Source of the DNA: Pseudeuparius sepicola
Taxonomy: Eukaryota; Arthropoda; Insecta; Coleoptera; Anthribidae
Direction: 5' to 3'
DNA: 64,000 bases
NCBI GenBank assembly: GCA_963920635.1
Contig: OY987307.1
Location: 5,890,001 to 5,954,000, forward strand
The position numbers and the translations under genes are program-made. The notes under the pieces were generated by a model. The model was not told where the DNA came from and did no database searches. It saw nothing but the letters and a program-made list of their open reading frames with translations. Shown here in pieces: positions 562 to 59,031 of the stretch (position 1 is the stretch's first letter; the number at the start of each line of letters is the position of its first letter).

Positions 562-588
562 CTCCGATCAAGTCATATTTGATCGGAG
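562..588. repeat. Micro-palindrome insert, 27 bp, 8-bp duplication GTTGTTAT
   Basis: Arms CTCCGATCAA / TTGATCGGAG around a 7-nt centre, flanked by GTTGTTAT at 554-561 and 589-596. It sits six bases inside intron 3 of P450 copy 1. The paralogous intron at 9215-9230 lacks the palindrome and has only one copy of the target, so this is an insertion. Unlike most members it starts CT rather than CA. Confidence 0.85.
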
Positions 589-783
589 GTTGTTATTATG
601 TGACTAAAAATAAAACTAATAAAATAAAAAAATGTAACAATTTTTGAGAATTTCAACATCATAATATTAATCATGTATTTCGAAATCGAGGGGGTGTGAA
701 AAAGGTATATTATTATTTTTTCTTTCCCTATTATGGTTGTCCCCCGAAAAAAAAAAACTCATTACTATAAGAGTTACGCTCTA

Positions 784-2321
784 TACACTGTGTCCCGGAT
801 AAGAATGAACAGCATGGGGATATTGCAAACAGTGAGAGATAGAGCAACGGTTAAATGGGGAAAAAGTTGCGCAATTTCGAGGTCAATAAAATGGCACAAA
901 CAGATTTCTAATATCTTTTTTCGTTTTTGAGTTATTTTGAAAAAAGTAAAATTTTGCGTTTTCGATTTTATTTTTTTCTGAAGTTGTTATCACAGATAGA
1001 AAAAAAAGAAAAACACTTTCTTATGGCACTTTTTAACGGGCTTTAAGACGGCGTTTTTAGATTTGTTCTACAACGTTTCGTTTTTGAGAAACCATCTTCA
1101 ACTTAATTTTTTTAAATACGGACCTGGATTTTTTTTGCAGATTTTGAAAGCACTTTTCATTGCAAATACCATGATGTATGACACGAAATATTTTTAAATT
1201 GTTTTGAGACAATTATTCTGAAAATTCCCTTTTTTCCATTCATTTTTCTCTAATGCGGCCCTGTATTTAATAATAAGAAGTCTAAATATTAATCAGTATT
1301 GTCAACAATTTAACTTATAACTTATCTTTCGATTATTGGAGAACCAAAAAAAAGGACGGCAAAGACTAATAACAGTCACATGCGATAATAAAAAATAAAT
1401 AAAACCCCCCACCTAGAAGGCTTTGAAACAACGAAACCAACCCCTTGTCATTTGTCATAACTCCCACTGTATCATTTAGTTAACAATTTGTATCATTAGA
1501 AATGGAGGGTGCTTTTTCAAATGGGGACAAATTTAACATGTCAGCATGTTATATCTTGCGTCACAGAAATAGTGTAGAGGCCGAACGAATGTATTGTTGC
1601 AATTAATAAATAGCAAAAGTTATTGATTTCGTTGGCTTAAAGCTTTCTTCTGACAATTAGAAAAAGCTAAGAATTTACTCCAAAACACAATGCGACACTG
1701 TTTGCTGTAGAACAACAGAGGAAAACACTTACCAGACAGGGCCGTATTTAAAAATATTAAGTTTTCGAAGTAAAAATAAACTGTAAATAAATTGTTGTCA
1801 ATACTGATTAATAATTAGACTTCTTATTATTAAATACAGGGCCGCAATAGAAAAAAAATGAATGGAAAAAAGGAATAATCAGTATAATTGTCTCAAAACA
1901 TTTTAAAAATATTTCGTGTCATACATCATGATATTTGCAATGAAAAGTGCTTTCAAAATCTGCAAAAAAAAATCCAGGTCCGTATTTAAAAAAATAAAGT
2001 TGAAGATGGTTTCTCAAAAACGAAACGTTGTAGAACAAATCTAAAAACGCCATCTTAAAGCCCGTTAAAAAGTGCCATAAGAAAGTGTTTTTCTTTTTTT
2101 TCTATCTGTCATAACAACTTCAGAAAAAATAAAATCGAAAACGCAAAATTTTACTTTTTTCAAAATAACTCAAAAACGAAAAAAGATATTAGAAATCTGT
2201 TTGTGCCATTTTATTGACCTCGAAATTGCGCAACTTTTTCCCCATTTAACCGTTGCTCTATCTCGTTTGCAATATCCCCATGCTGTTCATTCTTATCCGG
2301 GACACAGTGTATAATATGACA
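784..2321. mobile_element. Foldback element with about 530-bp inverted arms
   Basis: Ends TACACTGTGTCCCGGATAAG are inverted at both sides and flanked by TA at 782-783 and 2322-2323. The arms run about 784-1310 and 1795-2321 with only a few mismatches and small indels. No coding capacity was seen. It is inserted in intron 3 of P450 copy 1 and absent from the paralogous intron, so it arrived after the tandem duplication. TA duplication and long arms suggest a non-autonomous Tc1/mariner-type element. Confidence 0.85.
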
Positions 2322-3280
2322 TCAAAATAGATACGTACCTACATCAAGATAGAGATCATAAAGCGAAATGACGTCTTATGAATGTGTAATGCTGTTATTA
2401 TTAACGAAAGTGAAAAGTTATATTATTTGTTCCTAAATATGTATCTGCTGTTTTTATATTTATAGATTATTGGAATTGACTCTATTAAAAGTTTTCCAAA
2501 TTTGGTACCACGTGGATTTCATTTGAAACTGAGCGACTTAAAAAACGATTCAGTGATTTGATAGACAAAGTAGGTAAGTCAGTCTCACATTTTTTTAAAA
2601 AAATTTTTGTGTATTTTTTGTAGGTTATCGAAGAGAAAATTTGCTCAAAAGAAAGAAGACGTTCGTCGTCAGTAGCACAAGTCGACTATGGTAATGACAA
2701 ATATAAAAAAAATTAAAAAAAATCACAAATTTTTTTAGGTAACACCAAATTTGCGTTTTTGGACTCGATCATAGAAACCACCAATTTCACACTCAGGGAC
2801 GAAGTTAACATTTTTATTTTCGCCGTAACTACGATCTTTAATGTTTTGTAATATTTCTGATTCGTTTAAATTTCGTAGGGTACGGATACGACCGCAGCAA
2901 CAATGAGTTTCTTTTTTTCGGTTTTGGGTATACACCAAGATGTGCAGGTATATATAGGGAAAAATATCCCAATCGAACCTCAAACATTTCTTTTAGCAAA
3001 AAGTCTACGAAGAAGTTATCGAAATCATGGGCCACGACCGCATGCCGCAAACCAGCGACTTGCCCCTGATGAAATACACTGAGAACGTTATAAAAGAAAC
3101 TCTCAGATTATTTCCAGCCGCTCCGGTTATATTAAGAGTTATATCAGAAGATGTGGACGTAGGTAATAACTTTTTACGATTTTTGTTGGTGGACATGCAA
3201 AACCCGCCCAATAACATCATTTAAATTTCCAACCTCGTTCAAATACTATATTTTTCGGTCGGTTTGGGGTTTGAACGTCT

Positions 3281-5901: not shown

Positions 5902-5931
5902 CACAGAATAGCCTACGGTGGCTATTCTGTG
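5902..5931. repeat. Micro-palindrome insert, 30 bp, 7-bp duplication GCAATAC
   Basis: Arms CACAGAATAGCC / GGCTATTCTGTG. GCAATAC is exactly repeated at 5895-5901 and 5932-5938. The insert is nearly the reverse complement of the one at 37539, so these two belong to one sequence family. Confidence 0.85.
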
Positions 5932-6026: not shown

Positions 6027-6059
6027 CATTGAGTAAATGAATAATTCCTTTACTTAATG
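6027..6059. repeat. Micro-palindrome insert, 33 bp, near-exact 7-bp duplication
   Basis: Arms CATTGAGTAAA / TTTACTTAATG with centre GAATAATTC. Flanks ATAGTAC (6020-6026) and ATAGTAT (6060-6066) agree at 6 of 7 positions. Belongs with the CATTGA-type inserts at 16924, 24998 and 35535. Confidence 0.65.
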
Positions 6060-6081: not shown

Positions 6082-6116
6082 CACAGAATAAATAGCTTAT
6101 TACTCGTTAGTCTGTG
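6082..6116. repeat. Micro-palindrome insert, 35 bp, near-exact 7-bp duplication
   Basis: Terminal inverted CACAGA / TCTGTG with a decayed interior. Flanks GTTATAC (6075-6081) and GTTTTAC (6117-6123) agree at 6 of 7. Probably an older member of the CACAGA type. Confidence 0.6.
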
Positions 6117-6425
6117 GTTTTACCTATAATAAACAATAACCTTTACCTTGACAAAGGCGTGTTAAAAGCTTATTTTCTAAATAGGCAGAACACAATAATT
6201 GGATAAATTATATTGTATAATATAACACACCAGCAATCTCAAAAAGTACTCTGATAACATAATTATTAAGTAAATAAATACTATACTTGATAGGAAATCA
6301 AATAGTTGCTTAAATTCTTTCCAAAAGAATGCAACGTAAGTAAGCTTTTGCATTTACAACGGCAGAAGTACTTCAAACATTAGTGCCCCACTTAAAATAT
6401 CCCCTAGCGATAGGTACTAATAAAT

Positions 6426-7816
6426 AAAATATTAGAAAAAGGAAAATTTCCCAAGAGTTTAAAAATAGGACTAATAAAGCCACTCTATAAAAAAGGTGCC
6501 AAAGACTCCGTTGACAATTATCGACCTGTATGTTTGACTAGTGCTTTATCAAAAGTAATTGAAAAAATAATTAAAAAACGCATTGTTTCATATTTGAATA
6601 AATATGAATTAATATCCAGAAATCAATTTGGTTTCAGACAAGCAGTATCTACAGAAATAGTCCATCTAACAAATAATATATATTCCAACCTGGACAATAA
6701 CAGGAAGACAATAGCGATATTTCTGGATTTGGCAAAAGCCTTTGACACCGTTGATCAGGCAAAATTGATAAATTCACTTGAAGATCTAGGCTTTAGAGGT
6801 CCAGCTATTAGACTCATTACTACTTACCTTAGTGAAAGAATCCAGTATGTCAAAATTGGTGATGAGATCAGTAAACCACTACCAGTCACTTACGCTGTTC
6901 CTCAAGGTACGGTGCTGGGACCAATATTATTCTCCATCTATATAAATGGTATCCTGGAATTAGAACCTATTGGCAAAATAACATCATTTGCCGACGACAC
7001 CGTGATTGAGTACTGATTGAGTTACCTGGAACCACGTGAAACAAAACGCTGAAACAGAATTAGTCAAAATTAAGGATTGGTTTGACGACATGAGTCTAAC
7101 AATAAATTTTAATAAAACTAAGTATATAGTTTTTTCGTGTAAAAACACTGCCGTGCCGAATTATATAATTCTATAACAATAAATCAAGATGGAAAGGAAG
7201 TCACTCTGGACGAGGTGAACAGTATTAAGTACCTGGGAATTGAAATAGATAAGTTTATGAAATGGGTTGTTCATATTAAGTCGCTAATAAAAAACAAGAA
7301 GCATCCTGTTCAAGTTTAAGCAACTAAAAAACATTCTTAATCTTCCTAAGCTTAAGATGGTTTACTTTACTTTAGTGTATTCTTTAATACAATACGGTAT
7401 TGCAGGCTGGGGCGGTGCATATGATAACTTTATAAATCAGATCGAAATTGTTAAAAAACTGTTTATTAAAATAATGTTAAGAAAAAAGTCTACTTACCCA
7501 AGTGATCTGGTATACGAGTACCAGGAGAGCCACCTTCTTGACATCAGGCCGATATACTGCATGAAAATTGCTACCCTGCAACACAGAAAGAGGAGTGAGT
7601 TAAGACAGATCTCACATCTCAAAAGGAATATCAAACGTGGAAAGCATTTAGAGATCGACACACTTTCTTGCTCCACATCTGTACCGGCTAATTTCAAAAG
7701 ATATAAGAAATACTTTACAAATAATTTTGTTTAAAAATAGCGTCGAGAAATGGCTTTTATCTAAGCCTAGAATTCCTAGAAATATGGCTAAGAAACTAAT
7801 AAACATGAAGTAAAAA
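6426..7816 (+). pseudogene. LINE (non-LTR retrotransposon) reverse transcriptase fragment
   Basis: The frame starting near 6426 reads IGLIKPLYKKG, NYRPVCLTSALSKVIEK and NQFGFR (RT motifs 1-2), then FLDLAKAFDTVD, PQGTVLGPILF and the catalytic FADDT near 6990, in the usual order of a jockey/CR1-like LINE. After about 7013 the thumb and C-terminal part (KIKDWFDDMSL, SIKYLGI, LPKLKMVYFTL, ending about 7733) needs several frame changes. No endonuclease domain is present, so it is 5'-truncated, as is common for LINE copies, and dead. Clade assignment beyond LINE is tentative. Confidence 0.85.
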
Positions 7817-8669: not shown

Positions 8670-10869
8670 ATATCTACTACGTTATCATGAAAATGCAAGA
8701 AAAATATAAACGTGGTTTTAAAGGTTGGTTTAGACCAAGACTTTTCTACGTCCTAGCTCATCCAAACCACATAGAAAAAGTACTGGCGAGTTCGAAAACT
8801 TTAGAAAAAGACGATTTATATAAACACGTCGAAGATTTTTTATAGGGCGTACTCTTTTAACGGCACCCGGTTTAAGCCTTTAGTTAAATTCTGTAACAAT
8901 GGTGTTTTAGTATCCCTTTGGAAAGTACATCGGAAGGCAATCACTCCGTCTTTCAACCAAAAAGTACTAGATCCTTTCGTCGAAATATTTGCAGATAAAA
9001 GTGCAATATTTGCTGATATCCTTGAAAAACATATAGGAGAAAGACTTAATATTTTACAAGTAACCTCAAAGTGCACCTTGGATATAATTTTGGGTGAAAT
9101 AATATTTGAATTTTGAACAATACAACTTTATATATATTATATTTTAGAAACTGCCATGGGTGTAAAGTTCGATATCCAAACTGGCAATTCTGACCATCAT
9201 CTTGTTATGGACAGGTAAGTTTGTTATGTGACTAAAAATAAAACTAATAAACACACCTTCCCGAGGTTTAGATTCGAAAATACAGGGTGCAGTAGTCTGG
9301 GACAGAAATATTTTATGGTGGTCACTATAGGAGAGCAAATAACTGTTTACGCTGTATAATAATGCCACATCTACATCTATAAAATAGGTAGGTACCATAG
9401 ACATAACTAGGTCGTATTTTTAGGGGGGGCTGATCAGGACCGGCTCAAGATTTTGCGGGGCCGGGTGCCGCATGAAAATGCGGGGCCCCGACAAGGAATT
9501 ATTTAATCCATTAAGAAGAAATTTTTGAAAGTCGGTACGTTACTTACAAAGATATATTTTTTACATGTCATTCTGTAAAATGGTAGGCCGGGGCTACGAG
9601 TTTGGATCACTTCTGTGACGTATATAGGAATTAATTTCGAGTGGTGGAGGGACAATTGTTGTGTCTTTTTTAAACAAGGGCATTTAAAATAATTCTAAAA
9701 AATGAGCCGCAGGCGAAATTTTTTAAAAATTCGAAGAAACATTACATAAAATTAGTCTTGGGAAATCCCAATATCTTCAAATTTACAAGCTGGTGTGAAT
9801 ATTTTCAAATTCCGAAATGGGTTCGGTCCCGCCCTTCTAAATACGTTACTGATTGGATCACCCTGTACCACCCTTGAGGTGCCACACCCAAAAACGTTAA
9901 TTTTAAGGCTTCAAAAAATAATGTATAGGCCTATCTACTGGTAATTTTGAATCATCTTTAATTGATTTAAGAAAAAACATTATGAAAAAGTGGCGGTTTC
10001 CGAGTAGAAACCAGAGAAAAAATGTTGGAAATGTCTGCTATTTTGTGATGCAAGATTATTTACATACCTAGTACATATTATAACGAAACAACAATACAGT
10101 GGATGAATAACAAAATAAAAGTCTGGAGTCTGGAGTCTGGCACAGCAAAAGTACATTCTCCGACGCCCGTCTCGTCTCTCTTTCTCTCGGCAGCAGGCAC
10201 GGTGTGTTCGCTCTCGCTTGCGCGTTTAAATTTCAGCCGGATTTTGTGGGGGCACAAGGCGCAAGATTCCGCAAGAGCAAGCGATTCGTCGAAACTGGTG
10301 AATTTAAAAAGGCGCGTGCGGTGTTCGCCGTGTTGCGTAACGTTGCTTTGTCAGAATGTTAGATCTATTCTGTTTCCGAGAAGCATATCTTCGCACATCC
10401 TTTACATTTTAGGGACGACTAATAGAAATGTAGGAGGGCTAAGCCCCCCCCCTAGTTACGTTTATGGTAGGTACCTACATCAAGGAAGAGATCATTAAGC
10501 GAAAATGTCTTATGAATGTGTAATGCTGTTATTATTAACGAAAGTTAAAAGTTATATTAATTGTTCATAAATATGTATCTACTGTTTTTATACTTATAGA
10601 ATAATGGAATTGACAGTATTAAAAGTTTTCGAAATTTGGTACCACGTGGATCTCATTTGGAAACTGTCACCAGCTGGACGTGAAACTGAGCGATTCAGTG
10701 ATTTGATAGACAAAGTAAGTCGATTATGGGAATGACAAAAAGAAAAAAAACAACAAAAAAAAATATTTTTTTAGGTAAAACCAAATTTGGATTTTTGGAC
10801 TCTATCATAGGAACTACCGATTTCACAATCGCAGAACTCAGGGACGAAGTTAACATGTTTATTTTCGCC
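8670..10869 (+). pseudogene. CYP4-like cytochrome P450, copy 2 (truncated tandem duplicate)
   Basis: Exons homologous to copy 1: 8670-8869, 8911-9093, 9148-9214, 10600-10714 and 10775-10869. The first carries a frameshift and stop after KHVEDFL. Exon 4 is complete through SPAGRETERFSDLIDK. Intron 4 and nearly all of exon 5 are deleted; only its last bases survive at about 10721-10730. Homology ends about 10890, so the oxygen-binding helix, ExxR and heme exons are missing and the copy cannot encode a working P450. Intron sequence also matches copy 1, which shows a segmental tandem duplication rather than retroposition. The first exon here extends 5' further than in copy 1 (IYYVIMKMQEKYKR), which helps define the exon cut by the window edge. 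Confidence 0.88.
9428..9850 (+). repeat. Interspersed repeat shared with 21061-21470
   Basis: Starts AGGACCGGCTCAAG, contains GCGGGGCCCCGACAAGGAATT and later GCCGCAGGCGAAATTTT. The same order occurs at 21061-21470 inside the large palindromic element. It sits in intron 3 of P450 copy 2, where copy 1 lacks it. Confidence 0.75.
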
Positions 10870-13695: not shown

Positions 13696-13722
13696 CACAT
13701 ACCTATATTATATAGGTATGTG
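13696..13722. repeat. Micro-palindrome insert, 27 bp, 8-bp duplication GTGTACGA
   Basis: A perfect palindrome with 13-bp arms (CACATACCTATAT) around one T. GTGTACGA is exactly repeated at 13688-13695 and 13723-13730. Confidence 0.85.
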
Positions 13723-13749: not shown

Positions 13750-13781
13750 CACAGAAAATATACTACGATATATTTTCTGTG
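13750..13781. repeat. Micro-palindrome insert, 32 bp, 7-bp duplication GTTAAGG
   Basis: Arms CACAGAAAATATA / TATATTTTCTGTG with a short centre. GTTAAGG is exactly repeated at 13743-13749 and 13782-13788. Same sequence family as the insert at 54360. Confidence 0.85.
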
Positions 13782-16346: not shown

Positions 16347-17033
16347 CTAATACAACCCTTCTTCTGTTTCCTCTACAATAAAGTTAAAATCTTTATTTGT
16401 CTCGTTAATATTTGATTTTTGTACAAGTATGTTGGTTTCGAGATTCTCTTGATCTTCATTGTCCAAAATATAATCATGATTACTAAAATATCCTTTGTCA
16501 TTTTCAGTAGATGCTTCTGTACCATCAACTACTACAATAAAGTATGAATATAATACACAGAATTTACGTAGTGAAAAAAAAAATTGAATACGTTAATACT
16601 TACGTAATATGGCATCACCATCAAGCTTTGAATCAAGCCCATCAATTCGTACTCCCAATATATCTTTAACTTGTTCTTTAACGGGAGTGAATCTTACATT
16701 CTCCGGGGGTCCTCCACCTGTATAAAATATGGAGCTCTTTTCTTCGGCACATTTTTTCTTTGTCCTTTTTTTAATATGTTCATACTTATTTTTTAATATT
16801 TTTATATCCCGATATGTTACTCCCGAAGAGCTATTAAACTCAGAAGCAATCTTAGCCCAACAGCTATTTTTCTTCTCATTGTTTACAGCATCCGTTTTAC
16901 GGCATTCTATAATTGCCTTATACCATTGAATAAGGAATTCGTACCTTAATCAATGCTTATACTTTTGAAGAAGGGAAAGCAAAAGAGACTCTTCTTTGCT
17001 ATTAAAATTTGAAGCGCGTTTAACACTACACAT
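16347..17033 (-). pseudogene. Transposon Myb/SANT-like DNA-binding protein, interrupted
   Basis: On the - strand ATG at 17033 reads MCSVKRASNFNSKEESLLLS and continues after an interruption with IIECRKTDAVNNEKK, CWAKIASEFN and DIKILKNKYEHIKK. This is the trihelix Myb/SANT-like domain (EKYK..IIE.KKTD...KK..W..I...FN..) of transposon accessory proteins. A donor GTAAGT follows 16604; the next exon 16531-16347 restores phase and ends TAG (acidic tail). The 39 bp made of the micro-palindrome (16924-16955) and one target copy introduce TGA; removing them gives a continuous frame of about 190 codons. It would be a DNA-binding partner of a transposase. Confidence 0.75.
16924..16955. repeat. Micro-palindrome insert, 32 bp, 7-bp duplication CTTATAC, inside an ORF
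   Basis: Arms CATTGAATAAGG / CCTTAATCAATG. CTTATAC is exactly repeated at 16917-16923 and 16956-16962. On the - strand it splits the Myb/SANT-like frame between QKYK and AIIECRKTD. Confidence 0.9.
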
Positions 17034-24938: not shown

Positions 24939-24964
24939 CAAAGATCATAATATCATGATCTTTG
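24939..24964. repeat. Micro-palindrome insert, 26 bp, 7-bp duplication CTCTGGT
   Basis: Arms CAAAGATCAT / ATGATCTTTG. CTCTGGT is exactly repeated at 24932-24938 and 24965-24971. Another insert follows 33 bp later. Confidence 0.85.
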
Positions 24965-24997: not shown

Positions 24998-25032
24998 CAT
25001 AGAGAAATGAATATATTATTCCTTTGTCTATG
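24998..25032. repeat. Micro-palindrome insert, 35 bp, 8-bp duplication CGTGCCCC
   Basis: Arms CATAGAGAAATGAATA / TATTCCTTTGTCTATG (two mismatches). CGTGCCCC is exactly repeated at 24990-24997 and 25033-25040. Confidence 0.88.
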
Positions 25033-25040: not shown

Positions 25041-27153
25041 GAACTAGGTACGTCTGTGTACTTACACATGATATGTAACCTCCTTTGGAAACTTGCTTGA
25101 TCTGGCAAACAATACACTTTTTTGCCCATAACGTATAACTTAATTATATGTAAGCACTTTAAACACACGAATACTTAAGAAAACAGTTAAAAACGGCTAA
25201 AAATTGCTTCTAAAAGGCACAGCACCAGCTATGTCAAACACAAGTTGACGCACACTTTTGACCGACTTGCGCGTTTGCCAGATTGTGCGATTGGTAGGTC
25301 TGCTTTCCTTAGTTGTAGTACTAATAGCACGAGTACTTAATAGTATAGGAGTAATACTAATAATAGTAATAATAGTACCGAAGTGTCTAGATAATTAGAA
25401 AAAAAAAACAATAGATTCACCCATTATTCAGGCAGACCTTTTCTTATAAATAGATATCATCACCATTATTTACTTCAAAGTAAATATATTTGTAACTGGT
25501 TATTTATCTACATGTAAAGGAAACCATTGTTGAAGTTGAAAAATCTACTAGTATGTAGTATGAATTAGTTTAGTTATCTATTAATTTACCAGAAGTAATA
25601 ATATATGTTTTTCATAATGAATTTTGGCAACGCTGTTAAACTTTAACTAGTAAATAAATAATAGAATATAAAAAGTGCTACCGCTTACAAACATTCCAAA
25701 CTACAGACGCCATTTCTATGTTTTTTTCTGAGCTACCTACTTATAATAAAGCCGACTCTACTTCAGAAGAAGTATCGGGAAGGTTGACTTCTAGCAATTA
25801 CGAAACTGAAGCTGTATTGCCTGTATCTCAAGAAGAACCTACTTTACATCAGGAAGTAGGTACCTACCTATATCAAACAACTTATTGGTTCAAGAAATTT
25901 CCACTCCAGAGAAAAGTGAAAAAGTCGAGGAAAAAGTTGCCTATAGCACCCCTCAACCTGGATGTAGCAATATGTATACTGTGCCATGTAATTCAGAACG
26001 TCCTACCAAAGTCTAGAGAATACTATAAGTCCGATCATTCCTTGAAGTAGTCGAAAAGCCGCCGATTTTTTGCGACCGGTCCTAAATCAATGTCAGCTCG
26101 CCACTCGGTTATTTACGAGGATGGACTATACAAATCACCGTAAAACTAGTTGCACCAAGTTATATGGGGGCACCTTTATATTTACTTTCCATTATGCACC
26201 GTGAAGCATTAGTGTATATCGTTAGTTTTTGGTACAATGTTAAAAATTAAAATAGGAGTAATAGGTATAGTAGAAAAATAAGGAGCATAATGCATAATAA
26301 AAATGCAGGTATTTTACTTTTTACGTTTAAATAAAGTAAGATATACCTAACTAAACATAGAGTAAGTAAAAATATACAGTGTGTATATAGTTTACAAGTT
26401 TTCAAAATTATAAGTTTTGCATTTGATTTATTTTGTCTTTGGGTTGTTAATTCCCTATTTGCAAAGTTAAGTGTGTAGTAAATACGAACTCACGTATATA
26501 ATGAAACCAAATAGTCATGGGGAAAATTTGCACACGGATGTATATATTTTACTGATCGGAATTTCTTTAGTAGGCGGCTAGAACCTAAGCCATCCTGATA
26601 AGTCATTAAATTATGATAAGAAAATATGGTGTAAATTGATTATATATATATACACTAAATTCTCGTGGAGGTACTGTCAAACTGCCAAATGGTCCTGAAC
26701 TGCCAGATTACCCATACGTAATATGCCTAAAACCATAAGCTTCTGGTAATAATCTTATATGGAACAGCAGTTGTTAATAAATTTTTCCATACGAAGTTAA
26801 TGATTGGTCATATACGTTTATGTGTATGTGCCTCTTGTTCAAGTGCAATATTCGCAAATTTATGGTCTTTGAGGAACCCTAAGGCTTTCTTCCATTGCTG
26901 ACATCTGCAATTATCAATATTTTTATTTACAACAAAGAAAAAACACACCTGTGACATGAATAATTATTCCTTTACTCAATGGTATTATGTAATAATATAA
27001 TAATATTTCGATGACTATAGAAATAATTGATTAACACATTTTTCTTAATTATACGTCAAACTAAATCTTTACCTGTCGGGGTCTTTAGGAATTCGAAAAA
27101 GGACACACTCTCTTTTGAATTGCTTTTACAGCCATCCGCACTGCAAGAAGAAC
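25041..27153. other. Intron 1 stretch, mostly unassigned; one weak ORF
   Basis: An open frame of 110 codons at 25718-26050 on the + strand (MFFSELPTYNKADSTSEEVS..., a basic middle KVKKSRKK) is preceded by sequence without obvious repeats. I do not recognise it, and a chance frame in an intron is likely. A one-armed relative of the CATTGA micro-palindrome lies at about 26955-26981 without matching flanks. Confidence 0.3.
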
Positions 27154-27160
27154 CCATAAG

Positions 27161-27194
27161 CACAGACCTATTAGCGAAGCTATATAGGTCTGTG
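27161..27194. repeat. Micro-palindrome insert, 34 bp, 7-bp duplication CCATAAG
   Basis: Arms CACAGACCTAT / ATAGGTCTGTG with centre TAGCGAAGCTA. CCATAAG is exactly repeated at 27154-27160 and 27195-27201. Confidence 0.88.
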
Positions 27195-27634
27195 CCATAA
27201 GCCATAACTACTCAAAATTGGCAACGGTATTGGATATAATTTACGCGCACCCGGTACAATACGATGTAGGTACGCCGTTCCGAGAGACACTGTGTAACAA
27301 AGTGACGCTCGGAATCGCCCGCTCAACGGGATACCGATAGAGGGCTAACGCGAAGGGAGCGGGATCGGGCAGGGGGGAAATATTTGTTTACACAGGCCAA
27401 ATGAGCGGACTTATAGCATTCTCTAGACTTTGGTCCTACAGTTTTATATTTAATCAGAAAAAAAATTGTCCCACAGGAAAGTTAGGTACCTGGCATGACA
27501 TAAAGACACTTAAAGTTGTAAAAGAGCATCCGGATTCTTTTTCAGAATTTATATTCTATATTGAATTTGAATTTGTGTTTATACTATATTCTCAACTATT
27601 ATAACAACTAACAATGTTTTTTTTGCTATTTCAG

Positions 27635-33856: not shown

Positions 33857-35525
33857 TAGGGGAGCCCAAGAGGGGATTTTGGGATTTACTCAAGCGCGGC
33901 AGATTAACATATGGGCGGATACCTTGCACCCTGTTGAGTACCTCCACCATATCACAGAATAACTAAAATTATTCTGTGACCATATCTAAGCCCTCTATAC
34001 AGGGCCGCGCGTGTAGGGCAACCGATCAGAATAGTAAAAAAATATCTATAGGTGGATATACTCGAGCGCGTCAGATTAAGATATGACGGGTTAATTACAT
34101 GCTGAAAAGTGTGCATTTCAATAATCTGACGATTTGAGCGTGACGTAAGGGGGTGGGAGGGTCACAAACTTGCAAAAAAAAAACGTCACCTCAACTTTCT
34201 CGAGCGCGGTCGAATATTTTTTTTATTTTGAAGGAAATAATTCAAGGATAACGCGAAAAATATAATCTGCCGATTTCCACAAGCCGAAGTAACAAAAATC
34301 GTCGATAAAGTTTAGCGCGTGCAGCTAGCTGCAGTGAAGCATGTATTCCCCACTCCGCGCCTCTCTCTCCTCTTTCATTGTAAATTATTGACTATTGTTG
34401 ACTTGTGTAAAAATCTTGTATTTGGTAGCACCAATAAACACTATTCTATTCTATTCTATTCTCCCTTTCACTCTTTCTCTCGCACCGTCTCCACACGCCA
34501 GCCATCACAGCTGATCACAGCACTCGTGGTATTTTATGTACACAGTTATTCAAAGTCGATGTCCCTGGCCTATTGTAGGCAAACGAAAAGAGAAAAAATA
34601 TATCTGCTTCCGGGGTCTTAAATGGGACCAAATGAAGACTAAACTAAGATGAAATTGAGAATATTTGACAAACGACGCTCTGCGTCGCGGCGCCGTTCGA
34701 GTTTTTTTTTGTAACGAACGTACATTTTTTATTTGACATTTGGCAAGACATGCTTTTTATATATAAGTTTTATTTTAGACGTTTTGTCAAATTTTGTTTC
34801 GTTTAAGAAATATAGGTAATACAATATTTGCAAAGACAACGTTCAACACCCTGTAATATAAAAAATAAATTATTGAGAGCATATGTTTAAAGACAAAAAT
34901 TCCTTAATTTTTAACAGACAACATATTTTTCTTAGAAAACGCAAATATTCCTTAAAAAATAATGAAAAAATTTTTTTTTCAAACCGTCAGATTAAGAAAG
35001 TCCCTCCAAATAATCGTCAGATTATGAATCAGCACGACCAGGACATCAAGCAACCGTCTATATGAAAATCTGAGCGCTCGAGTATGTCAAAATGGCGATT
35101 TTTTTTGCATTTTCAAAAAGCCGCCACGAGCTGGCGTCACATCCGAATCGTCAGTCTATTGAATGGGAGCTTATTTCGGGTTCACTTAACATCCCTTCTG
35201 AATATCTGACGCGCTCGAGTAAATTTTTTTTCTTCCCATTTTTAACTCTTCCGTACGGCCGCCCCCACTATGCAAACCGGCAGATTAACATACCTACGTC
35301 ATCGGAGACACGTGGGGCATATACACTATCGATATCTGACGCGCTCGAGTATCTCCATGTGACTATTTTTTTTTACATTTGTGAAAGCCTATAGACGCTC
35401 CCCCCACCAATGGAAGGGTATATATATCATATAACCTTTTTTCTTTCTACCATCTAATCTTCAAAATCCAATAGGTCCCCATGACGCTCGAGTAAATCCC
35501 CATTTAGCATCGTGGGCTCCCCTAC
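33857..35525. mobile_element. hAT-like non-autonomous element with internal motif array
   Basis: Ends TAGGGGAGCCCA (33857) and TGGGCTCCCCTAC (to 35525) are inverted. TACTATAG is repeated at 33849-33856 and 35526-35533. An 8-bp duplication and TAGGG ends fit hAT. The interior carries about a dozen variants, in both orientations, of CTCGAGCGCGTCAGATTA. These lie near 33893, 34061, 34124, 34197, 34265, 34985, 35016, 35065, 35205, 35280, 35335 and 35484. No transposase is present. A fragment ending in (CTATT)n at 34441-34465 looks like a retroposon tail. Confidence 0.7.
33953..33978. repeat. Micro-palindrome insert, 26 bp, 7-bp duplication ACCATAT
   Basis: Arms CACAGAATAA / TTATTCTGTG. ACCATAT is exactly repeated at 33946-33952 and 33979-33985. 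It is inserted inside the hAT-like element. Confidence 0.88.
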
Positions 35526-35534: not shown

Positions 35535-35563
35535 CGTTAAGTGAATTATTCCTTCACTCAACG
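35535..35563. repeat. Micro-palindrome insert, 29 bp, 7-bp duplication CTATAGT
   Basis: Arms CGTTAAGTGAA / TTCACTCAACG with centre TTATTCC. CTATAGT is exactly repeated at 35528-35534 and 35564-35570, overlapping the right target copy of the hAT-like element. It starts CG instead of CA. Confidence 0.82.
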
Positions 35564-36181: not shown

Positions 36182-37748
36182 TACAGGGTGTTCCAATAAG
36201 GACTCCCGTCGGCGATATCTCCGGAACAAAAAGAGATATTTTAATTCTGCAAGCTCCGTTCCCTAGGACGTGAAGAGGGCTTTATTTGAAACTGCTAAGC
36301 GTTCATTTTGATATTAGCGTATAGATGGCGCTGCGGTGCAAAGAAACTTTTCGATCCTAGGAACGTTACTAGTTTCTCAGATAACCGCTCTACAATGTCA
36401 ACTAAAAAATGAGGTAACTGGCGTAAGACTCAATGTACAGCGTGTCCCAAATAGTTTGTCCTACCCCCTGGATCTCAGGAACCGTAAGAGATACGAAAAA
36501 AACTTGAATACAAAAGTTGTAAGGTTCGCAGTGGACGTAACGTCTCTTTTATTTTCACATATACAGGGCGATTCGTATTTGCAGGACAAAAATAAAATAT
36601 TTAGATTTTGACAATTGCATTAATCCTTTGGAATATTTGCATTCTACATTAAATTTGCTACAGAACCGGTTTTTTTTGTTTTGTATTTTGGATGCAGCGT
36701 TGCCAAGATATCGAATTTTTCTTGGAATTTAGGGACTTTCGTGGAGGTTATGGAAACTGAATGCTGTATCTTTATTTTAATAGATAGGTATCAAAGATAT
36801 ATTTTAGCCTAAGTATGACAGCACAACCGTGTGTGGGTGGTATGTCGAAACTGGTTTTTGCCTCAAAATCAGATAATTTCAAACAGCAATAACTTTTTTT
36901 TTCAAATGGAATGGCCCATATTTCTATAGTTTGTTGAATGCCGGCGGCCAAGCCCCACATAACATTCTATACCAAAAACTACCCGTTTTCGAGATATTTA
37001 GTATTTAAGAAAATTTCTTTGCATTTTTCATTCAGGTGAGAAGGTTTTATCAAGCAGGCCATAACTATTTATCCAGACAGTGGCAGAAATAATTGCCATT
37101 TTAGATAATACGGGAAATAAAATTCCTATACCCGTATACAGCTTTTCACATTATAAAGGTCGCTTTCCTTACATTAGTGATTAGGATATGAAATAAAAAG
37201 AAGCAAAAAAATTGTAAAATTGGTCATTTTGTATAAAATTATTTCTTGATTTTGAATCAGAGGAAATATAATATAAAATTTTATTTTTTTTCCCATGAAA
37301 TATAGGACCTAATGTGCATCTGAACAACATACCACACCAGACGTGCATAGATTTGTGCCCTTGTTTTTTAATAACTTTTTCCTCTAAGGTTAAAACTTTA
37401 AGCGAGTTAGCTCATTTTTTGTAAATAACATTGTAGAGCGGTTATCTCAGAAACTAGTAACAATAGGAAAATCGTCCAAAGAACAAAAGTGTCTCCAAAT
37501 TACCCAGGCTTTCAGATGCGTTCCAACGTTCCTAGGATCACAGAATAGCCACCGTAAGGCTATTCTGTGCTAGGATCAAAAAGTTTCTTTGCACCGCAGC
37601 GCCATCTTTACGCCAATATCAAAATGAACGTTTATCAGTTGGAAATACAGCCCTCTTCACGTCCTAGCAAACAGAGTTTGCCGAATTAAAATATCTTTTT
37701 TTGTTCCGGAGATATCGGCGACGGGAGTCCTTATTGGGACACCCTGTA
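36182..37748. mobile_element. TACAGGGTG foldback element in intron 2
   Basis: TACAGGGTGTTCCAATAAGG at 36182 is inverted at 37748, with TA at both edges. Arms of several hundred bp share GAGATATCGCCGACGGGAG (as complement) and GCGCTGCGGTGCAAAGAAAC. The right arm has an extra micro-palindrome (37539) absent from the left arm. Non-coding. Confidence 0.85.
37539..37569. repeat. Micro-palindrome insert, 31 bp, 7-bp duplication CTAGGAT, with empty site
   Basis: Arms CACAGAATAGCC / GGCTATTCTGTG. CTAGGAT is exactly repeated at 37532-37538 and 37570-37576. The mirror position in the other arm of the host foldback (36354-36360, ATCCTAG) has a single uninterrupted target. Confidence 0.92.
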
Positions 37749-40075: not shown

Positions 40076-40114
40076 GGTTCTGGCGTCATTGCTTATCACT
40101 CATCTCGCCAACAG

Positions 40115-47338: not shown

Positions 47339-49044
47339 TACAGGGTCCGTCAAATGTATGGAATAATGGGTGTATCTTTTTTATTTATGTTTCTGAAAAA
47401 AAAAATGTGTTATACAAAAGTTTCTTGGTTAATTTTTTGGCACTTTCTTGTAACCTTGAATTTTTTTCATCCGTCATAGTTACGCTGCTATGGAGACCAA
47501 CTTTTTTTTCAAATGGCACCCGCTCTTTTTTATTTAGATTTTGTGATCAGCGTTCATTTCTGCATTAGGTACTTCAAAAATATCTAATGGTTGCATAAGA
47601 AAATAATCGACAAAAATCACTTTCACGCAAAATCAGCGTTAACAGCAAGGTGTGATCCCCTGTTATTGTCCCCTTTTTCTGTTTGCGGTTTTTTTGCACT
47701 TTTTTATTGTCCTCTTTTTCTGTTTGCGGTTTTTTGCATTTCGAGGTACCCGTGGATCAGGGCAACTAGTACTTTCATTGTTGTTAGTTTGACAAGTTTC
47801 ATTATCTGCGTTTAATACATTAGAACCCATTTTTAACAAAATGGTTCATTTGTCAGAAAGGGAAAGGATTGATGTTCTCATCATGGTAGGATTGGTAGGT
47901 TTCGGAGACCGAAAAAGGACTCAAGAGGAAGTGGTTATACTATTTAATGAGACTTATCCTAATAGACCACGTATCAGTCAGTCTTGTGTTTCCAGAGTGG
48001 TAAAGAAATTCAGAGAAACAGGTATTGTTAAAGATAAACAGAAGAGCTGGATCTTTGACCGATAGGTACAGTTTTGTGAGACATTTCTTCACAGAATACA
48101 GGATAATCCAAATTTTGTCGATAACGTTTTGTTTTCTGACGAAGCCACCTATTTATGTTTAATGGAAATCTTAATAGGCATAACTGCCGATATTGGGCTC
48201 CGCAAAATCCCCACTGGTTCGATGAAGTTCATACGCAGAGGCCCCAAAATTTAAATGTTTGGGCGGGCATTCTAGGCAAGCGCATCATAGGTCCATTTTT
48301 TATAGACGACAATTTGACAGCAGAAAGATATTTAGATTTGCTACAACATCAGGTTCTACCCGAAAGAGGACAAAATGAGGATGGAGTGTGGTTTCAACAA
48401 GATGGGGCTCCCCCTTATTTTAGAAGACACGTGAGGAACTACCTGGACAATGTTTTCCCAAACAGGTGGATTGGGCGGCGAGGAACAATTGAGTGGCCAG
48501 CACGATCACCAGATCTCACACCGTGTGATTTCTTTTTGTGGGAATACATTAAAAATAAAATTTATGTGGATAGGCCAAATAACTTGTATGACTTATTGAA
48601 TTATTGGAGAAATGAGGGATCTGAGGGATGAACTATTTCAAAATGTAAGAAGATCGTTTGTAGAAAGACTGGAACTTTGTAGTGACGGTGCACACTTTGA
48701 ACATTATCTTTAAGTTAAGTTTTATTAAGGTTGTAAAAATAAATTAACGCTGGTTTTACGTGAAAGTGATCTTTGTCGATTATTTTCTTATGCAACCATT
48801 AGATATTTTTGAAGTACCTAATGCAGAAATGAACGCTGATTACAAAATCTAAATAAAAAATAGGGGGTGCCATTTCAAAAAAAGTTGGTCACCATAGCAA
48901 CGTAACTATGACGGATGGAAAAAATTCAAGGTCACCAGAAAGTGGCAAAAAAGTAACCAAGAAACTTTTGTATAACATTTTTTTTTTCAAAAACAAAAAT
49001 AAAAAAGATACACCCATTATTCCATACATTTGACGGATCCTGTA
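47339..49044 (+). mobile_element. Tc1/IS630-type transposon with about 300-bp TIRs
   Basis: TACAGGGTCCGTCAAATGTA at 47339 is inverted at 49044 (TACATTTGACGGATCCTGTA). Arms extend to about 47635 and from about 48758 with small differences. TA borders both ends. It carries a damaged transposase gene (47841-48713). End sequence and long arms match the style of the non-coding TACAGGGTG foldbacks, so this is a candidate source type. It lies in intron 3 of the GH20 gene. Confidence 0.88.
47841..48713 (+). pseudogene. Tc1/IS630-type (DDE) transposase, disrupted
   Basis: ATG at 47841 opens an HTH region: MVHLSERERIDVLIMVG, RTQEEVVILFNETYP, ISQSCVSRVVKKFRETG, ending with TAG at 48063. The catalytic part resumes out of frame: NVLFSDEATY (first Asp), then after a one-base loss NRHNCRYW, NVWAGILGKRIIGPFF, WFQQDGAPP (second Asp) and SPDLTPCDFFLWEYIK (third acid). 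Near 48600 a further frame change leads to a tail ending HFEHYL and TAA at 48713. The segment between the HTH and the first Asp is much shorter than in the family, so an internal deletion is likely. The protein would cut and paste the element; this copy cannot. Confidence 0.88.
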
Positions 49045-49861: not shown

Positions 49862-50295
49862 CAATGACGTCAAAACCTATAGACAGGTTTGTTTTGACAA
49901 ACGCTTGACGCCCAGAACTAATCACAATCTAAGCGCTCCATTAAATTATTCCGAAAATGTCGCGAGATTGTCAGAAATTGCCCCTTTTTGTCGAGCCGTA
50001 GCGAACTTATTTCGACTCTGGGCTCGGAGGCTGGCGTCGCTAGACCGTCCCCCGAGTCTTCAGGTGAGGTTCCGATGCTTCCGGCGCCCCCAAACAAGAA
50101 AAAACATGCGATATCTACGTGTGATTCTGGAGGAACTATAACCGGGAATCACCGGGTGTATAGTTGGTTGATGGTTGACTTTCTGTCTTTGTTTGTAGCA
50201 TGTTTTTAGAGTAGTATGGATATATTTAATCTTGGAGTCAAAATAAAGGGCATTTTAACAATGGGGCACCACGTCTATAGGTTTTGACGTCATTG
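49862..50295 (+). mobile_element. CA...TG-ended element, 434 bp, 8-bp duplication CTAATTAC
   Basis: CAATGACGTCAAAACCTATAG at 49862 is inverted at 50295. CTAATTAC is exactly repeated at 49854-49861 and 50296-50303. The ends (CA/TG) and duplication length are those of the micro-palindromes, but this copy has an interior. The interior includes a frame reading SPESSGEVPMLPAPPNKKK that is also present in the partial copy at 37822-38083. It ends 50 bp before GH20 exon 4. Confidence 0.82.
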
Positions 50296-50345
50296 CTAAT
50301 TACCCTGCACTATCAGTCACACTTCAGTCGCCCGGTCTCCCGCAG

Positions 50346-50645
50346 GTGTACGAGTACCGGCCGTGGTCCGGCCTGTCCGCCGGCCGGCGGCGCCTGGTCG
50401 CCGGCGCCGAGGCGTGCCTGTGGAGCGAGCAGGTGGCCGAGGGCGAGCTGCAGGCGCGCGCGTGGCCGCGCGGCGCCGCGTTCGCCGAGCGCGCCTGGTC
50501 GGACCCGCCGGCGGCCGGCGCCGCGGCCCGCGCGCCGGTCGCGGCGCGCCTGCAGGCGCAGGCGGCGCGCATGCGCGCCCGCGGCGTCGACGGCGCCGCC
50601 GTCTGGCCGCGCTGGTGCTCGCTCAACCCCGAGCGGTGTCGGTGA
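50346..50645 (+). CDS. GH20 hexosaminidase exon 4: C-terminal part and stop
   Basis: Acceptor CCCGCAG|GTG; codons 523-621, TGA at 50643-50645. VYEYRPWSG, GAEACLWSEQV (substrate-binding Trp) and WPRGAAFAERAWSDP are standard GH20 C-terminal motifs, and the end WPRWCSLNPERC matches the conserved cysteine-bearing tail of insect enzymes. Base composition is extreme: nearly every third position is G or C and alanine/arginine codons dominate (ARAPVAARLQAQAARMRARG), unlike exon 2. All overlapping long frames on both strands here are by-products of that composition. Confidence 0.93.
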   Translation: MYEYRPWSGLSAGRRRLVAGAEACLWSEQVAEGELQARAWPRGAAFAERAWSDPPAAGAAARAPVAARLQAQAARMRARGVDGAAVWPRWCSLNPERCR

Positions 50646-54359: not shown

Positions 54360-54394
54360 CACAGAAAATATATGCTACGCGTATATTTTCTGTG
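54360..54394. repeat. Micro-palindrome insert, 35 bp, 8-bp duplication GCAAGGAC
   Basis: Arms CACAGAAAATATA / TATATTTTCTGTG around TGCTACGCG. GCAAGGAC is exactly repeated at 54352-54359 and 54395-54402. It shares arms with the insert at 13750, 40 kb away. Confidence 0.9.
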
Positions 54395-56914: not shown

Positions 56915-57352
56915 ATATTATATAAATTTGCATTTTGTGACTTATAATACACTCGCATTCCAGGCGACGAATTATCTAGTTGATTATTTTTGCATGCATA
57001 CAGCACAATTTTATTCATCCAGGCATAGTCTGAAAAAGAATTAAATAGTTTAGAAAAACACTACCTACAGAAAATGCAAAATATTTGCTTCTCTTAAAAA
57101 GAATATACGAATAATTAATCGCTAATAAATCTAAGCAAAACCAGAAATTATAGTATTGAGAAGAGATCCCACCGCTGTAGCTACTAAGCTTAAGCTGTAA
57201 GCTCTATATTATGTACTGATTAGAATGCTATAGTAATCACCGCTACATGCTACATGCAAATTTCTTGACTCGTTACATACCGCCCTCTATGGATGATAGC
57301 CTGAAGTTTAATTTCTCCCGTCATAGTTTCCCTCTTGATCGCTGGATGAACC

Positions 57353-57396
57353 TGGACCGACACTATATTAATAATAATATAGTGTTGGTTGGTCCA
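57353..57396. repeat. Micro-palindrome insert, 44 bp, 9-bp duplication GGATGAACC
   Basis: Arms TGGACC...ACACTATATT / AATATAGTGTT...GGTCCA; the right arm has four extra bases. GGATGAACC is exactly repeated at 57344-57352 and 57397-57405. Longer, less perfect and without CA/TG ends, so it may be a different kind of event. Confidence 0.6.
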
Positions 57397-57454
57397 GGAT
57401 GAACCCAACGGCGCTGCTTAAAATGCCTATGCCGGACAATCGCAGAGATCATTA

Positions 57455-58364
57455 CACAGTGCCCGCCAAAAAGTCTGCACCATATGGGAAAAATTTTTAG
57501 TAAATAACTTACGGAAAATTTGTTTGCGGCATCAGGTTTTGCTTGCTCTAGAACCAAAATTGACATAATCAAATGTTGTGACGTAGTCTTTTTTGTATGT
57601 CAAATTTGACATTAATGAAAAAAATGTCCGAAAAATGGGCTTATTTAACCGAATTTCGAAAAAAGTCATAAGAAAAATATGTTTCTTTCTCAATTTTATA
57701 CCCCTGTGCAAAATTTCAAGAGCCTACTACGATTTTCATATTTTGCCCTTTGTTGCCCTTTTCCGTATTTGTTAATCCATAAAAGTCGATCCTATGTAAT
57801 TTAAAACACTCATTGAGTGAATACATACTGCACAATACTTAGTTTACGGTCTAAATATCATTCTTTTCCTTTTTTTGCAAAAAAATTAAAATGAGGGCTT
57901 GTTGAAGAAGCACGCTTGGTGCAAAACTGATCTCATTTTTACAGATAAACACATAAATTCGATTTACAAACTTCTTTCTATAGTAAATGGTTGTAAAAAC
58001 ACACAAATATTTCTGTCATGCTGATCTGATCAGAAATATCTAGAAAATTTAAAATATTATGTCCAATAATATCCAACAAAGGGCAAAATATGAAAATCGT
58101 AGTAGGCTCTTAAAATTTTGCATAGGGGTATAAAATTGCGAAAGAAACATATTTTCCTTATGACTTTTTTCGAAATTCGGTTAAATAAGCCCATTTTTTT
58201 CATTAATGTCAAATTTGACATATCAAAGAGACTACGTCACAACATTTGATTATGTCAATTTTGGTTCTAGAGCAAGCAAAACCTGTTACCGCAAACAAAT
58301 TTTCCGTAAGTTATTTACTAAAAATTTTTCCCATATGGTGCAGACTTTTTGGCGGGCACTGTAT
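57455..58364. mobile_element. Foldback with ACAGTGCCCGCC ends
   Basis: ACAGTGCCCGCCAAAAAGTC near 57457 is inverted at 58362; arms of about 320 bp share CCATATGGGAAAAATTTTTAG. The same end occurs alone at 11647. Non-coding. Confidence 0.85.
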
Positions 58365-58745
58365 ATACCCACAGGAAATTTAAAGGAACTGAGATAAATT
58401 GATTGAAATTAAAAATAAATTTTATTTTATGTGCTATTTTCAGGGCCGTCCTTAACCTATTGGAGGCCCTGGGCACATGACCCTATGACCTTGACAGAGC
58501 ACTATTTTGTTAGAATAGACAAAGAAACAAAGAAAGGATATGACCGTTTCGTCATTTTATATTATAATTCAATACTTATTTTTACACCGAAAATAGTCGC
58601 CAACACAAAACAAAACAGGCAAACGACGATTTAATCCACAATTTAATCAAAGAATACCTCAGAGCACAGTCAGTATGAACTATAAACAAAACAAACGTGA
58701 CAACACCACAGACAAATACAGGATACAGGACAGGGAAATTCCTTA

Positions 58746-59031
58746 AGGTGGATTTATAAACTTGTCGTTTGCGTTGGCGCTCGAAGTTGAGGGTGACCTT
58801 CGCAGTTTGCGTCCAGAAATGTGAACGACGGATCGTGAAAGATGAAATTAGTTTATCTGTCGGACGCAGAGAAATGGAGAATCTCCATTTCTCTGGTCGG
58901 ACGGCATCGGACGCAGACGGCAACGTTCGACGGCGTTTATAAATGGTTACACGTAAAATATTGGGATTTAATTTTCGACGCAAACGGCAACGGCGAGCGC
59001 CAACGCAAACGTCGAGTTTATAAATCCACCT
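58746..59031. mobile_element. Harbinger-like MITE, 3-bp TTA duplication
   Basis: AGGTGGATTTATAAACTTGT is inverted at 59031 (ends AAATCCACCT). TTA flanks it at 58743-58745 and 59032-59034. The arms extend inward with GCGTTGGCGCTCG. The 286-bp size and TTA target fit PIF/Harbinger MITEs. A micro-palindrome sits in its centre. Confidence 0.75.
58867..58895. repeat. Micro-palindrome insert, 29 bp, 8-bp duplication GTCGGACG
   Basis: Arms CAGAGAAATGGAGA / TCTCCATTTCTCTG around a single A. GTCGGACG is exactly repeated at 58859-58866 and 58896-58903. It is nested in the TTA-flanked MITE. Confidence 0.92.

What the first reader, a model, noticed from the sequence alone, without database searches (positions are those of the whole stretch)
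562..58903. Dispersed 26-44 bp palindromes flanked by 7-8 bp target duplications: a population of micro-insertions
Seventeen sites (562, 5902, 6027, 6082, 12202, 13696, 13750, 16924, 24939, 24998, 27161, 33953, 35535, 37539, 54360, 57353, 58867) have a short palindrome between direct repeats. Fifteen repeat pairs are exact and two agree 6 of 7. Thirteen of the palindromes start CA and end TG in the full 26-35 bp size class. Different sites have different target sequences, so the flanks are duplicated host DNA. Such small inserts with full target duplications are below the size of ordinary MITEs, and I know of no named nuclear family like this.
Basis: seen in the sequence. Interest (0 to 1): 0.92.

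Follow-up and report, generated by a model that had tools for sequence, protein, structure and literature searches.

The report
Scars left by departed P transposons
The short palindromes scattered through this insect chromosome are most likely not tiny jumping genes but repair scars: each marks a place where a P-type transposon once sat, was cut out, and left the stubs of its two ends joined together between its duplicated target site.

Summary
16 of the 17 sites are 26-46 bp palindromes between 7- or 8-bp direct repeats (14 exact, 2 with one mismatch). The 17th, 12202, does not fit. Of 60 Markov sequences, 50 gave no hit and none more than 2. Among CA..TG palindromes in the window, exact flanking repeats occur at 7 and 8 bp and at no other length from 3 to 12. 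Paralogous empty sites hold one copy of the repeat.

They are best read as excision footprints of P-superfamily transposons, not micro-elements. One arm family has 662 palindromes genome-wide and also full transposons with the same terminal inverted repeats (TIRs). The decisive test used the TIR of the window's own decayed P element (26007-27432, transposase C-terminus, 7-bp duplication): 570 matching palindromes exist, 0 for the reversed pattern. 45 of the first 50 listed are at most 34 bp, that is 2 x 17. One hAT TIR gave 1. Junctions show microhomology and TIR-templated filler. Published Drosophila P-excision junctions have the same anatomy.

The kind of scar is known; the scale, perhaps tens of thousands, was not found in nine literature searches. 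The autonomous parent of the CACAGAAAATATA family was not identified.

The parts
562..588 (.). scar, 27 bp, CT..AG ends, 8-bp repeat GTTGTTAT
   Evidence: empty site in a paralogue at window 9086-9251
5902..5931 (.). scar, 30 bp, CACAGAATAGCC arms, 7-bp repeat GCAATAC
6027..6059 (.). scar, 33 bp, CATTGAGTAAA arms, 7-bp repeat with 1 mismatch
   Evidence: same arm family as L007:1166
6082..6116 (.). scar, 35 bp, CACAGAATAA end, 7-bp repeat with 1 mismatch
13696..13722 (.). scar, 27 bp, CACATACCTATA arms, 8-bp repeat GTGTACGA
13750..13781 (.). scar, 32 bp, CACAGAAAATATACTACG subfamily, 7-bp repeat GTTAAGG
   Evidence: family counted genome-wide
16924..16955 (.). scar, 32 bp, CATTGAATAAGG arms, 7-bp repeat CTTATAC
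24939..24964 (.). scar, 26 bp, CAAAGATCAT arms, 7-bp repeat CTCTGGT
24998..25032 (.). scar, 35 bp, CATAGAGAAATG arms, 8-bp repeat CGTGCCCC
26007..27432 (.). decayed, internally deleted P-superfamily element; TIR CAAAGTCTAGAGAATACTATAAGTC (one mismatch between the two ends), 7-bp repeat GTCCTAC
   Evidence: TIR and repeat; transposase remnant inside; its TIR predicts 570 palindromes genome-wide
26400..26597 (-). remnant of the C-terminus of a P transposase (last ~70 residues, one in-frame stop)
   Evidence: tblastn 62% over 66 aa to P0162, E 3e-18; blastp E 4e-23 to the C-terminal end of P0162. No Pfam family matched the piece itself
27161..27194 (.). scar, 34 bp, inside the P element above; CACAGACCTAT arms, 7-bp repeat CCATAAG
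   Evidence: shares 23 nt with the presumed TIR at L013:456 (read by eye)
33953..33978 (.). scar, 26 bp, CACAGAATAA arms, 7-bp repeat ACCATAT
35535..35563 (.). scar, 29 bp, CGTTAAGTGAA arms, 7-bp repeat CTATAGT
37539..37569 (.). scar, 31 bp, same family as 5902 in opposite orientation, 7-bp repeat CTAGGAT
54360..54394 (.). scar, 35 bp, CACAGAAAATATACG subfamily (read on the minus strand), 8-bp repeat GCAAGGAC
57352..57397 (.). scar, 46 bp, CTGGACCGACACTATATTA arms, 7-bp repeat GATGAAC
   Evidence: full 2954-bp element with a closely similar TIR and a 7-bp repeat at L014:2042-4995; related, diverged sequence without the palindrome at L006:8602-8792
58867..58895 (.). scar, 29 bp, CAGAGAAATGG arms, 8-bp repeat GTCGGACG

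Best explanation
Each palindrome is the excision footprint of a P-superfamily DNA transposon. Step 1 (shown for some sites): an element inserted and duplicated 7 or 8 bp of target. Step 2 (inferred from P-element biochemistry): its transposase cut it out with a long stagger inside the terminal inverted repeats, so both chromosome ends kept the outer ~17-24 bases of the TIR as single-stranded 3' tails between the two target copies. Step 3 (inferred from the junctions): the two identical tails were joined by end joining of the polymerase-theta type, at microhomologies or after copying short stretches of TIR as filler. The product is target copy - TIR stub - variable junction - inverted TIR stub - target copy. 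The scar itself should be inert: it is far shorter than the ends P transposase is reported to need. Many P-type families did this, so arm sequences differ while anatomy stays the same.
For: (a) P link: the window's element 26007-27432 holds a P-transposase C-terminus, CA..TG TIRs and a 7-bp duplication. Its TIR, tested as a prediction, gave 570 palindromes, 0 for the reversed pattern. From places alone, 45 of the first 50 listed (all on C1) are 34 bp or shorter, with peaks at 33 (12) and 28 (10); 34 is 2 x 17. One hAT TIR, from L008 (hAT domain), gave 1, although that TIR is no rarer in the 150 kb held (3 copies against 1).
(b) Parents: among the first 100 listed places, CACAGAAAATATACGCTACGC forms + / - pairs mostly 3.6-9 kb apart. 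The one whose ends were read has a 31-bp identical TIR at both ends and an 8-bp repeat, GTCTATAG.
(c) Size class: spacers 0-16 / 17-46 / 47-76 give 662 / 106 / 20, some places overlapping. In the 72 junctions read (first 50, 22) the match to the TIR never exceeds 24 bases per side, while the TIR of one subfamily runs to 31.
(d) Repair signature: 30 distinct centres among 50; the two commonest (8 and 7 copies) sit on 2-nt and 4-nt microhomologies. In 20 of 22 long junctions the filler copies TIR beyond shuffled expectation, p<0.05 each.
(e) Empty sites: L022 against L013, L020 against L015, window 562 against window 9086.
(f) Target preference in 33 sites: 7-bp repeats lean to GTANTAC (T2/A6 in 28 of 36 positions, G1/C7 17 of 36); 8-bp ones to G..C ends (18 of 30). 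Galileo, a P-superfamily element, has 7- or 8-bp TSDs, GTANTAC (PMC4168063, passages).
(g) Drosophila P excision in Rad51-deficient flies gives acccagac-CATGATGAAATAACATA-junction-TATGTTATTTCATCATG-acccagac (PMC2895639, section 9 with Tables 2 and 3).
(h) P-type transposase domains are abundant: 150 matches over the cut-off, 150 scored of 1302 candidates.
Against: The transposase of the CACAGAAAATATA family was not found. None of the PF21787 places listed (11 of the 150 lie on C1 below 45 Mb) falls inside its elements there, compared by eye. The slice read of one parent's interior (1201 bp) is tandem repeats without a gene. That family keeps up to 24 nt per side, more than Drosophila's 17. 3 of the 15 CACAGAAAATATA loci fetched lack an exact repeat (L016; L029 and L030, which look like one tandemly duplicated place). 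Three scars (562, 35535, 57352) do not begin CA. In flies with normal homologous repair most recovered products come from partial copying plus end joining, not from direct joining (PMC2895639 passage). hAT targets also favour nTnnnnAn (recalled), so the 8-bp target preference alone does not separate P from hAT. Parents of most window arm families were not sought.
Confidence: 0.9

Rival explanations
1. Micro-MITEs: the 26-46 bp palindromes are themselves mobile, moved in trans by a transposase that recognises only the short arms.
For: Some exact palindromes recur at different sites: the 40-mer 7 times and the 29-mer 8 times among the first 50 listed. The copies fetched have different exact 7-8 bp repeats (L019, L023, L027).
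Against: 30 distinct centres among 50. The recurrent ones are those expected from CGCG and TA microhomologies in the parent TIR. Long fillers are copies of TIR pieces in 20 of 22. Drosophila P is reported to need at least 138 and 216 bp of its ends (PMC1562414 passage), and two ends with no loop between them could hardly be synapsed (inference).
Confidence: 0.04
2. Internal deletions made by aborted gap repair (copying from the sister, then end joining) of any cut-and-paste family, with no special role for a staggered cut.
For: Drosophila P breaks are often repaired by partial synthesis followed by end joining (PMC2895639, passages). Short deleted copies also exist here, e.g. TIR pairs 292, 606 and 611 bp apart.
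Against: Partial copying should give a broad size range. Instead counts are 662 for spacers 0-16, 106 for 17-46 and 20 for 47-76, no side exceeds 24 nt in the 72 junctions read, and 45 of 50 P-family palindromes listed are at or below 34 bp.
Confidence: 0.04
3. hAT-superfamily footprints or hAT-derived micro-MITEs (8-bp duplications, CAGAG-like ends).
For: 8-bp duplications and ends such as CAGAGAAATGG at 58867 look hAT-like (recalled).
Against: One hAT TIR gave 1 palindrome genome-wide, against 570 for a P TIR. hAT excision cuts at the flank and leaves little element DNA (recalled). 7-bp repeats fit Galileo/P. For single families such as 58867 hAT is not excluded.
Confidence: 0.03
4. Chance palindromes near chance repeats.
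For: Fits site 12202 only.
Against: Markov controls, repeat length confined to 7-8 in the window, genome-wide counts against zero controls.
Confidence: 0.001

Closest known systems
Drosophila P-element excision (end-joining) junctions of Chan, Yu and McVey 2010 (PMC2895639; passages, and section 9 with Tables 2-3, seen)
   Same: Two copies of the target duplication around two TIR stubs in inverted orientation, variable centre, microhomology or templated filler, stubs at most 17 nt
   Different: There: recovered in the laboratory from one marked element in repair-mutant flies. Here: a natural, genome-wide set from several TIR families; duplications of 7 as well as 8 bp; one family keeps up to 24 nt per side
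Galileo (P superfamily; PMC4168063, passages seen)
   Same: 7- or 8-bp target duplications with the GTANTAC-type preference seen here
   Different: Galileo is a full element with long TIRs; no short palindromic scars appear in the passages seen
P-MITEs of Anopheles (PMC1562414, passages seen)
   Same: Non-autonomous P relatives flanked by 8-bp duplications, with P masters whose TIRs are 27-31 bp, comparable to the tandem-repeat parent at C1:26917708-26921359 (31-bp TIR, 8-bp duplication)
   Different: P-MITEs keep P-derived 5' and 3' ends around an internal sequence; the palindromes keep only joined TIR stubs

Membership tests
P-superfamily excision footprint | 7-8 bp target duplication on both sides of the residue | tested here: met
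   14 of 16 window sites exact, 2 of 16 at 6/7; 12 of 15 CACAGAAAATATA loci exact; no other length in the window. Not readable for the 570 palindromes
P-superfamily excision footprint | Residue is the outer part of both TIRs of a known full element | tested here: met
   Same TIR on full elements: one family; window P element; L014, similar to 57352. Parents of the other window families were not sought one by one
P-superfamily excision footprint | Parent carries a P-type transposase | tested here: met
   Met for the CAAAGTCTAGAG family. Not established for the CACAGAAAATATA family or the other arm families (not tested)
P-superfamily excision footprint | Stub length limited by the 17-nt stagger | tested here: inconclusive
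   P family: 45 of the first 50 lengths at most 34 bp. CACAGAAAATATA family: up to 24 nt per side
P-superfamily excision footprint | End-joining signature at the centre (microhomology, templated filler) | tested here: met
   for the CACAGAAAATATA family
P-superfamily excision footprint | Full element and scar as alternative alleles of one site | not testable with these tools
   no second genome of the species available
MITE (mobile short element) | Copies share internal sequence and end sequence | tested here: not met
   only outer TIR bases are shared; 30 distinct centres among 50
MITE (mobile short element) | Long enough ends for transposase synapsis | not tested
   no assay; the reported requirement for P is 138/216 bp (passage)
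hAT footprint | Palindromes arise from hAT TIRs | tested here: not met
   1 palindrome for one hAT TIR; one family tested only

The most novel reading that the evidence does not exclude
This genome keeps a fossil record of tens of thousands of P-type excisions, so that most P-type insertions in its history have left and only their scars remain. Different P lineages left stubs of different maximum length (about 17 against about 24 nt) and duplications of 7 against 8 bp, so the scars record how each extinct transposase cut. They are also a natural library of germline end-joining products large enough to read the rules of polymerase-theta repair in a wild animal.
Probability: 0.4. Interest if true: 0.75.

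Novelty: new member of a known kind. Interest (0 to 1): 0.62.

Why it matters
As far as I know (recalled), repeat annotation does not recognise such scars. They would turn a 'mystery microtransposon' class into a countable record of transposon departures, which is usually invisible. The two sets counted here already give up to 662 and 570 repair events (some may be duplicated copies of one event). The scars would let cut geometry, target choice and repair outcome be measured for P-superfamily lineages known only from the genome, and would allow loss rates of DNA transposons to be estimated.

Tried and rejected
A reading as RNA-like hairpins with UNCG-type loops was considered and dropped: in the CACAGAAAATATA family the TACG centres are simply TIR sequence (CGCTACGCG). 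THAP as a P marker in L001:6080-8001 was dropped: the THAP domain is real, but the frames beside it look like PIF/Harbinger (my reading, recalled) and no P match was found there. The search for a gene inside a CACAGAAAATATA parent failed: the 1201-bp slice read is tandem repeats, and no PF21787 place listed on C1 below 45 Mb coincides with its elements (by eye). The 55-bp palindromes at 32549 and 38565 that the detector also found were left out: their flank is 6 bp (AAGCTT), and the 38565 copy lies in a larger inverted repeat. The first detector had a boundary error, was replaced, and its counts are not used. The hAT copy number genome-wide and the P-family 31-60 spacer count could not be obtained, because the machine did not answer. 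Nine literature searches listed no paper that, from title and start of abstract, reports a genome-wide natural set of P excision scars; only open-licence papers are held. The host as a beetle rests on the GH20 hits (Diabrotica, Rhamnusium); the species was not determined.
Full report
Where it lies. The window is G000:C9:5890001-5954000 of a 769-Mb assembly in 16 contigs, eleven of them chromosome-sized (28-154 Mb). The nearest named protein relatives of its GH20 hexosaminidase exon are from beetles.

Checking the observation. I re-read all 17 sites and refined their ends. Sixteen are palindromes of 26-46 bp between direct repeats of 7 or 8 bp, 14 exact and 2 with one mismatch; 13 of 16 run CA..TG. 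Site 12202 does not fit. A de novo detector found 16 hits in the window, 13 of them with repeats of at least 7 bp. Of sixty Markov sequences 50 gave none and none gave more than 2 (11 hits in all, 6 with repeats of 7 or more); the mirror control gave 1. When the palindrome is fixed first and every repeat length from 3 to 12 is tried, exact repeats occur in the window only at 7 and 8 (7 and 4 of 23 CA..TG palindromes); in 15 other stretches of 10 kb, 4, 1 and 1 of 33 at 7, 8 and 6. In those 15 stretches I count six sites of the class with exact 7-8 bp repeats (L005:2295, L007:1166, L009:1357, L013:2057, L014:2852, L014:4108). Left out are two longer hits (L008:1491, L009:7932) and L011:4913 (6 of 7). 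Extrapolated, six per 150 kb is of the order of 30,000 in the genome, with a wide error.

They are insertions. Joining the flanks of 38 sites and searching the sequence held gave paralogous copies that run through some of them with one copy of the repeat. The cleanest are L022 against L013 (95% over 300 bp, CTATAACC once), L020 against L015 (CTGGCAC once) and window 562 against window 9086-9251 (TTGTTAT once). The other seven comparisons (57352, L009, L026, L013:2057 three times, L020 against the window) are diverged or gapped at the junction and are weaker evidence.

They belong to full-size transposons. The arms CACAGAAAATATA with 0-16 bases between occur 662 times genome-wide, reversed control 0. 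The longer end CACAGAAAATATACGCTACGC occurs 480 times on + and 452 on -, control 0. Among the first 100 places listed many form + / - pairs mostly 3.6-9 kb apart, a few shorter. One such element, C1:26917708-26921359, has an identical 31-bp TIR at both ends and an 8-bp repeat GTCTATAG; the 1201 bp of its interior that were read are tandem repeats without a gene. Of 15 palindromic loci of this family fetched, 12 have exact 7- or 8-bp repeats; L016 has none, and L029/L030 look like one tandemly duplicated place without an exact repeat. Repeat length follows the TIR subfamily: of the loci with an exact repeat, those beginning CACAGAAAATATACG on either strand have 8 bp (9 of 9) and the others, mostly ...ATACTACG, have 7 bp (6 of 6), with window 13750, window 54360 and L014:2852 added to the 12.

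They look like junctions, not elements. In the first 50 listed palindromes of this family (all on C1) there are 30 distinct centres. The two commonest, a 29-mer (8) and a 40-mer (7), correspond to joining the two TIR stubs at a 2-base and a 4-base (CGCG) microhomology. Spacers of 17-46 give 106 and of 47-76 give 20, some places overlapping. In the 22 longer junctions whose letters were shown (of 106), 20 fillers contain stretches of TIR longer than shuffled fillers do (p<0.05); the two exceptions have fillers of 5 and 2 bases. The match to the TIR is at most 24 bases on any side of the 72 junctions, although the TIR of the first subfamily runs on to 31; the second subfamily's TIR is known to about 20 bases only, and by its pattern admits at most 42 bp in all.

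The P connection. P transposase is described as cutting the 5' strand 17 bp inside the element, leaving 17-nt tails, with 8-bp duplications and 31-bp TIRs (PMC7776569, passages). Drosophila P excision junctions from Rad51-deficient flies are two target copies around two stubs of at most 17 nt with short microhomologies or templated inserts (PMC2895639, passages, section 9 with Tables 2-3). In flies with normal homologous repair most products come from partial copying followed by end joining, so direct joining on the scale seen here is not what that paper would predict for every setting. The Galileo branch has 7- or 8-bp duplications with consensus GTANTAC (PMC4168063, passages). Our 7-bp repeats lean the same way. 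The genome holds many P-type transposases: 150 scored of 1302 candidates, all over the cut-off; L031 carries PF21787, PF21788 and PF21789. With 120 P homologues tblastn found one remnant in the sequence held, apart from L031: window 26400-26597, the last ~70 residues of a P transposase, lying inside the TIR element 26007-27432 with its 7-bp repeat GTCCTAC. I then used that element's TIR as a prediction. The pattern CAAAGTCTAGAG N0-30 CTCTAGACTTTG occurs 570 times, reversed control 0. From the places of the first 50 (all on C1), lengths run 24-48 bp, 45 of 50 at most 34, with peaks at 33 and 28. Their flanks could not be read. A hAT TIR (element L008:4929-5818, hAT domain) gave 1 palindrome, although that TIR is no rarer in the sequence held; only one hAT family was tried.

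What is shown and what is inferred. Shown: insertion with duplication at some sites, shared TIRs with full elements in the families tested, junction-like centres in one family, a steep fall in size, and a successful prediction from a P element. Inferred: that the cut is staggered inside the TIR, that repair was by polymerase theta, and that all arm families, not only the tested one, are P-type. The family with up to 24-nt stubs is either a P lineage with a longer stagger, or its stubs were lengthened by limited synthesis before joining. Its transposase is unidentified.

Novelty. Excision footprints of P elements are known from experiments. A natural set of this size was not found in nine searches of the open-licence library (listings and starts of abstracts, with passages of five papers seen). 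I therefore file it as a new member of a known kind, unusual for its scale and for its use as a record of past transposon loss and repair.

Noticed in passing
window 32549-32603 and 38565-38619; L012:9119-9173: 55-bp sequence with 16-bp arms GTCGCGAGATTTAAGT and AAGCTT on both sides. Two of the three copies lie inside a larger inverted repeat (38467-38679; L012:9021-9271), which looks like a palindromic foldback element.
   Followed up: partly
window 49862-50295; L003:518-951; related ends at window 37824 and L002:4507: 434-bp repeated element with CAATGACGTCA ends and 8-bp duplications (CTAATTAC, GCTATACC), probably a non-autonomous DNA transposon family.
   Followed up: no
window 27708-28661, 40060-40533, 50259-50642: Open frames of a GH20 beta-N-acetylhexosaminidase-like gene. 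The first matched beetle GH20 proteins; the other two are my reading of frames. If one gene, its introns hold the scars 33953, 35535 and 37539.
   Followed up: partly
C1:26917708-26921359 (L032-L034): Non-autonomous parent whose interior, where read, is diverged tandem repeats; + / - TIR pairs of this family vary from about 3.6 to 9 kb, as if repeat number varied.
   Followed up: partly
L001:6080-8001: Element with ~32-bp TIR, a 9-bp repeat ACCGGCACC, a THAP domain and frames resembling a PIF/Harbinger nuclease; its superfamily is unclear.
   Followed up: partly
L014:4108-4127, L013:7011-7038, window 562-588: Palindromes with CT..AG ends (CTCAGAC, CTCAGAGAAATAACC, CTCCGATC). L002:6406-7067 is a 662-bp element with similar ends, so a second end class also seems to leave scars.
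   Followed up: no
window 48155-48631; 6414-7016: Open frames resembling a mariner-type transposase and a LINE reverse transcriptase (recognised by eye, not tested).
   Followed up: no
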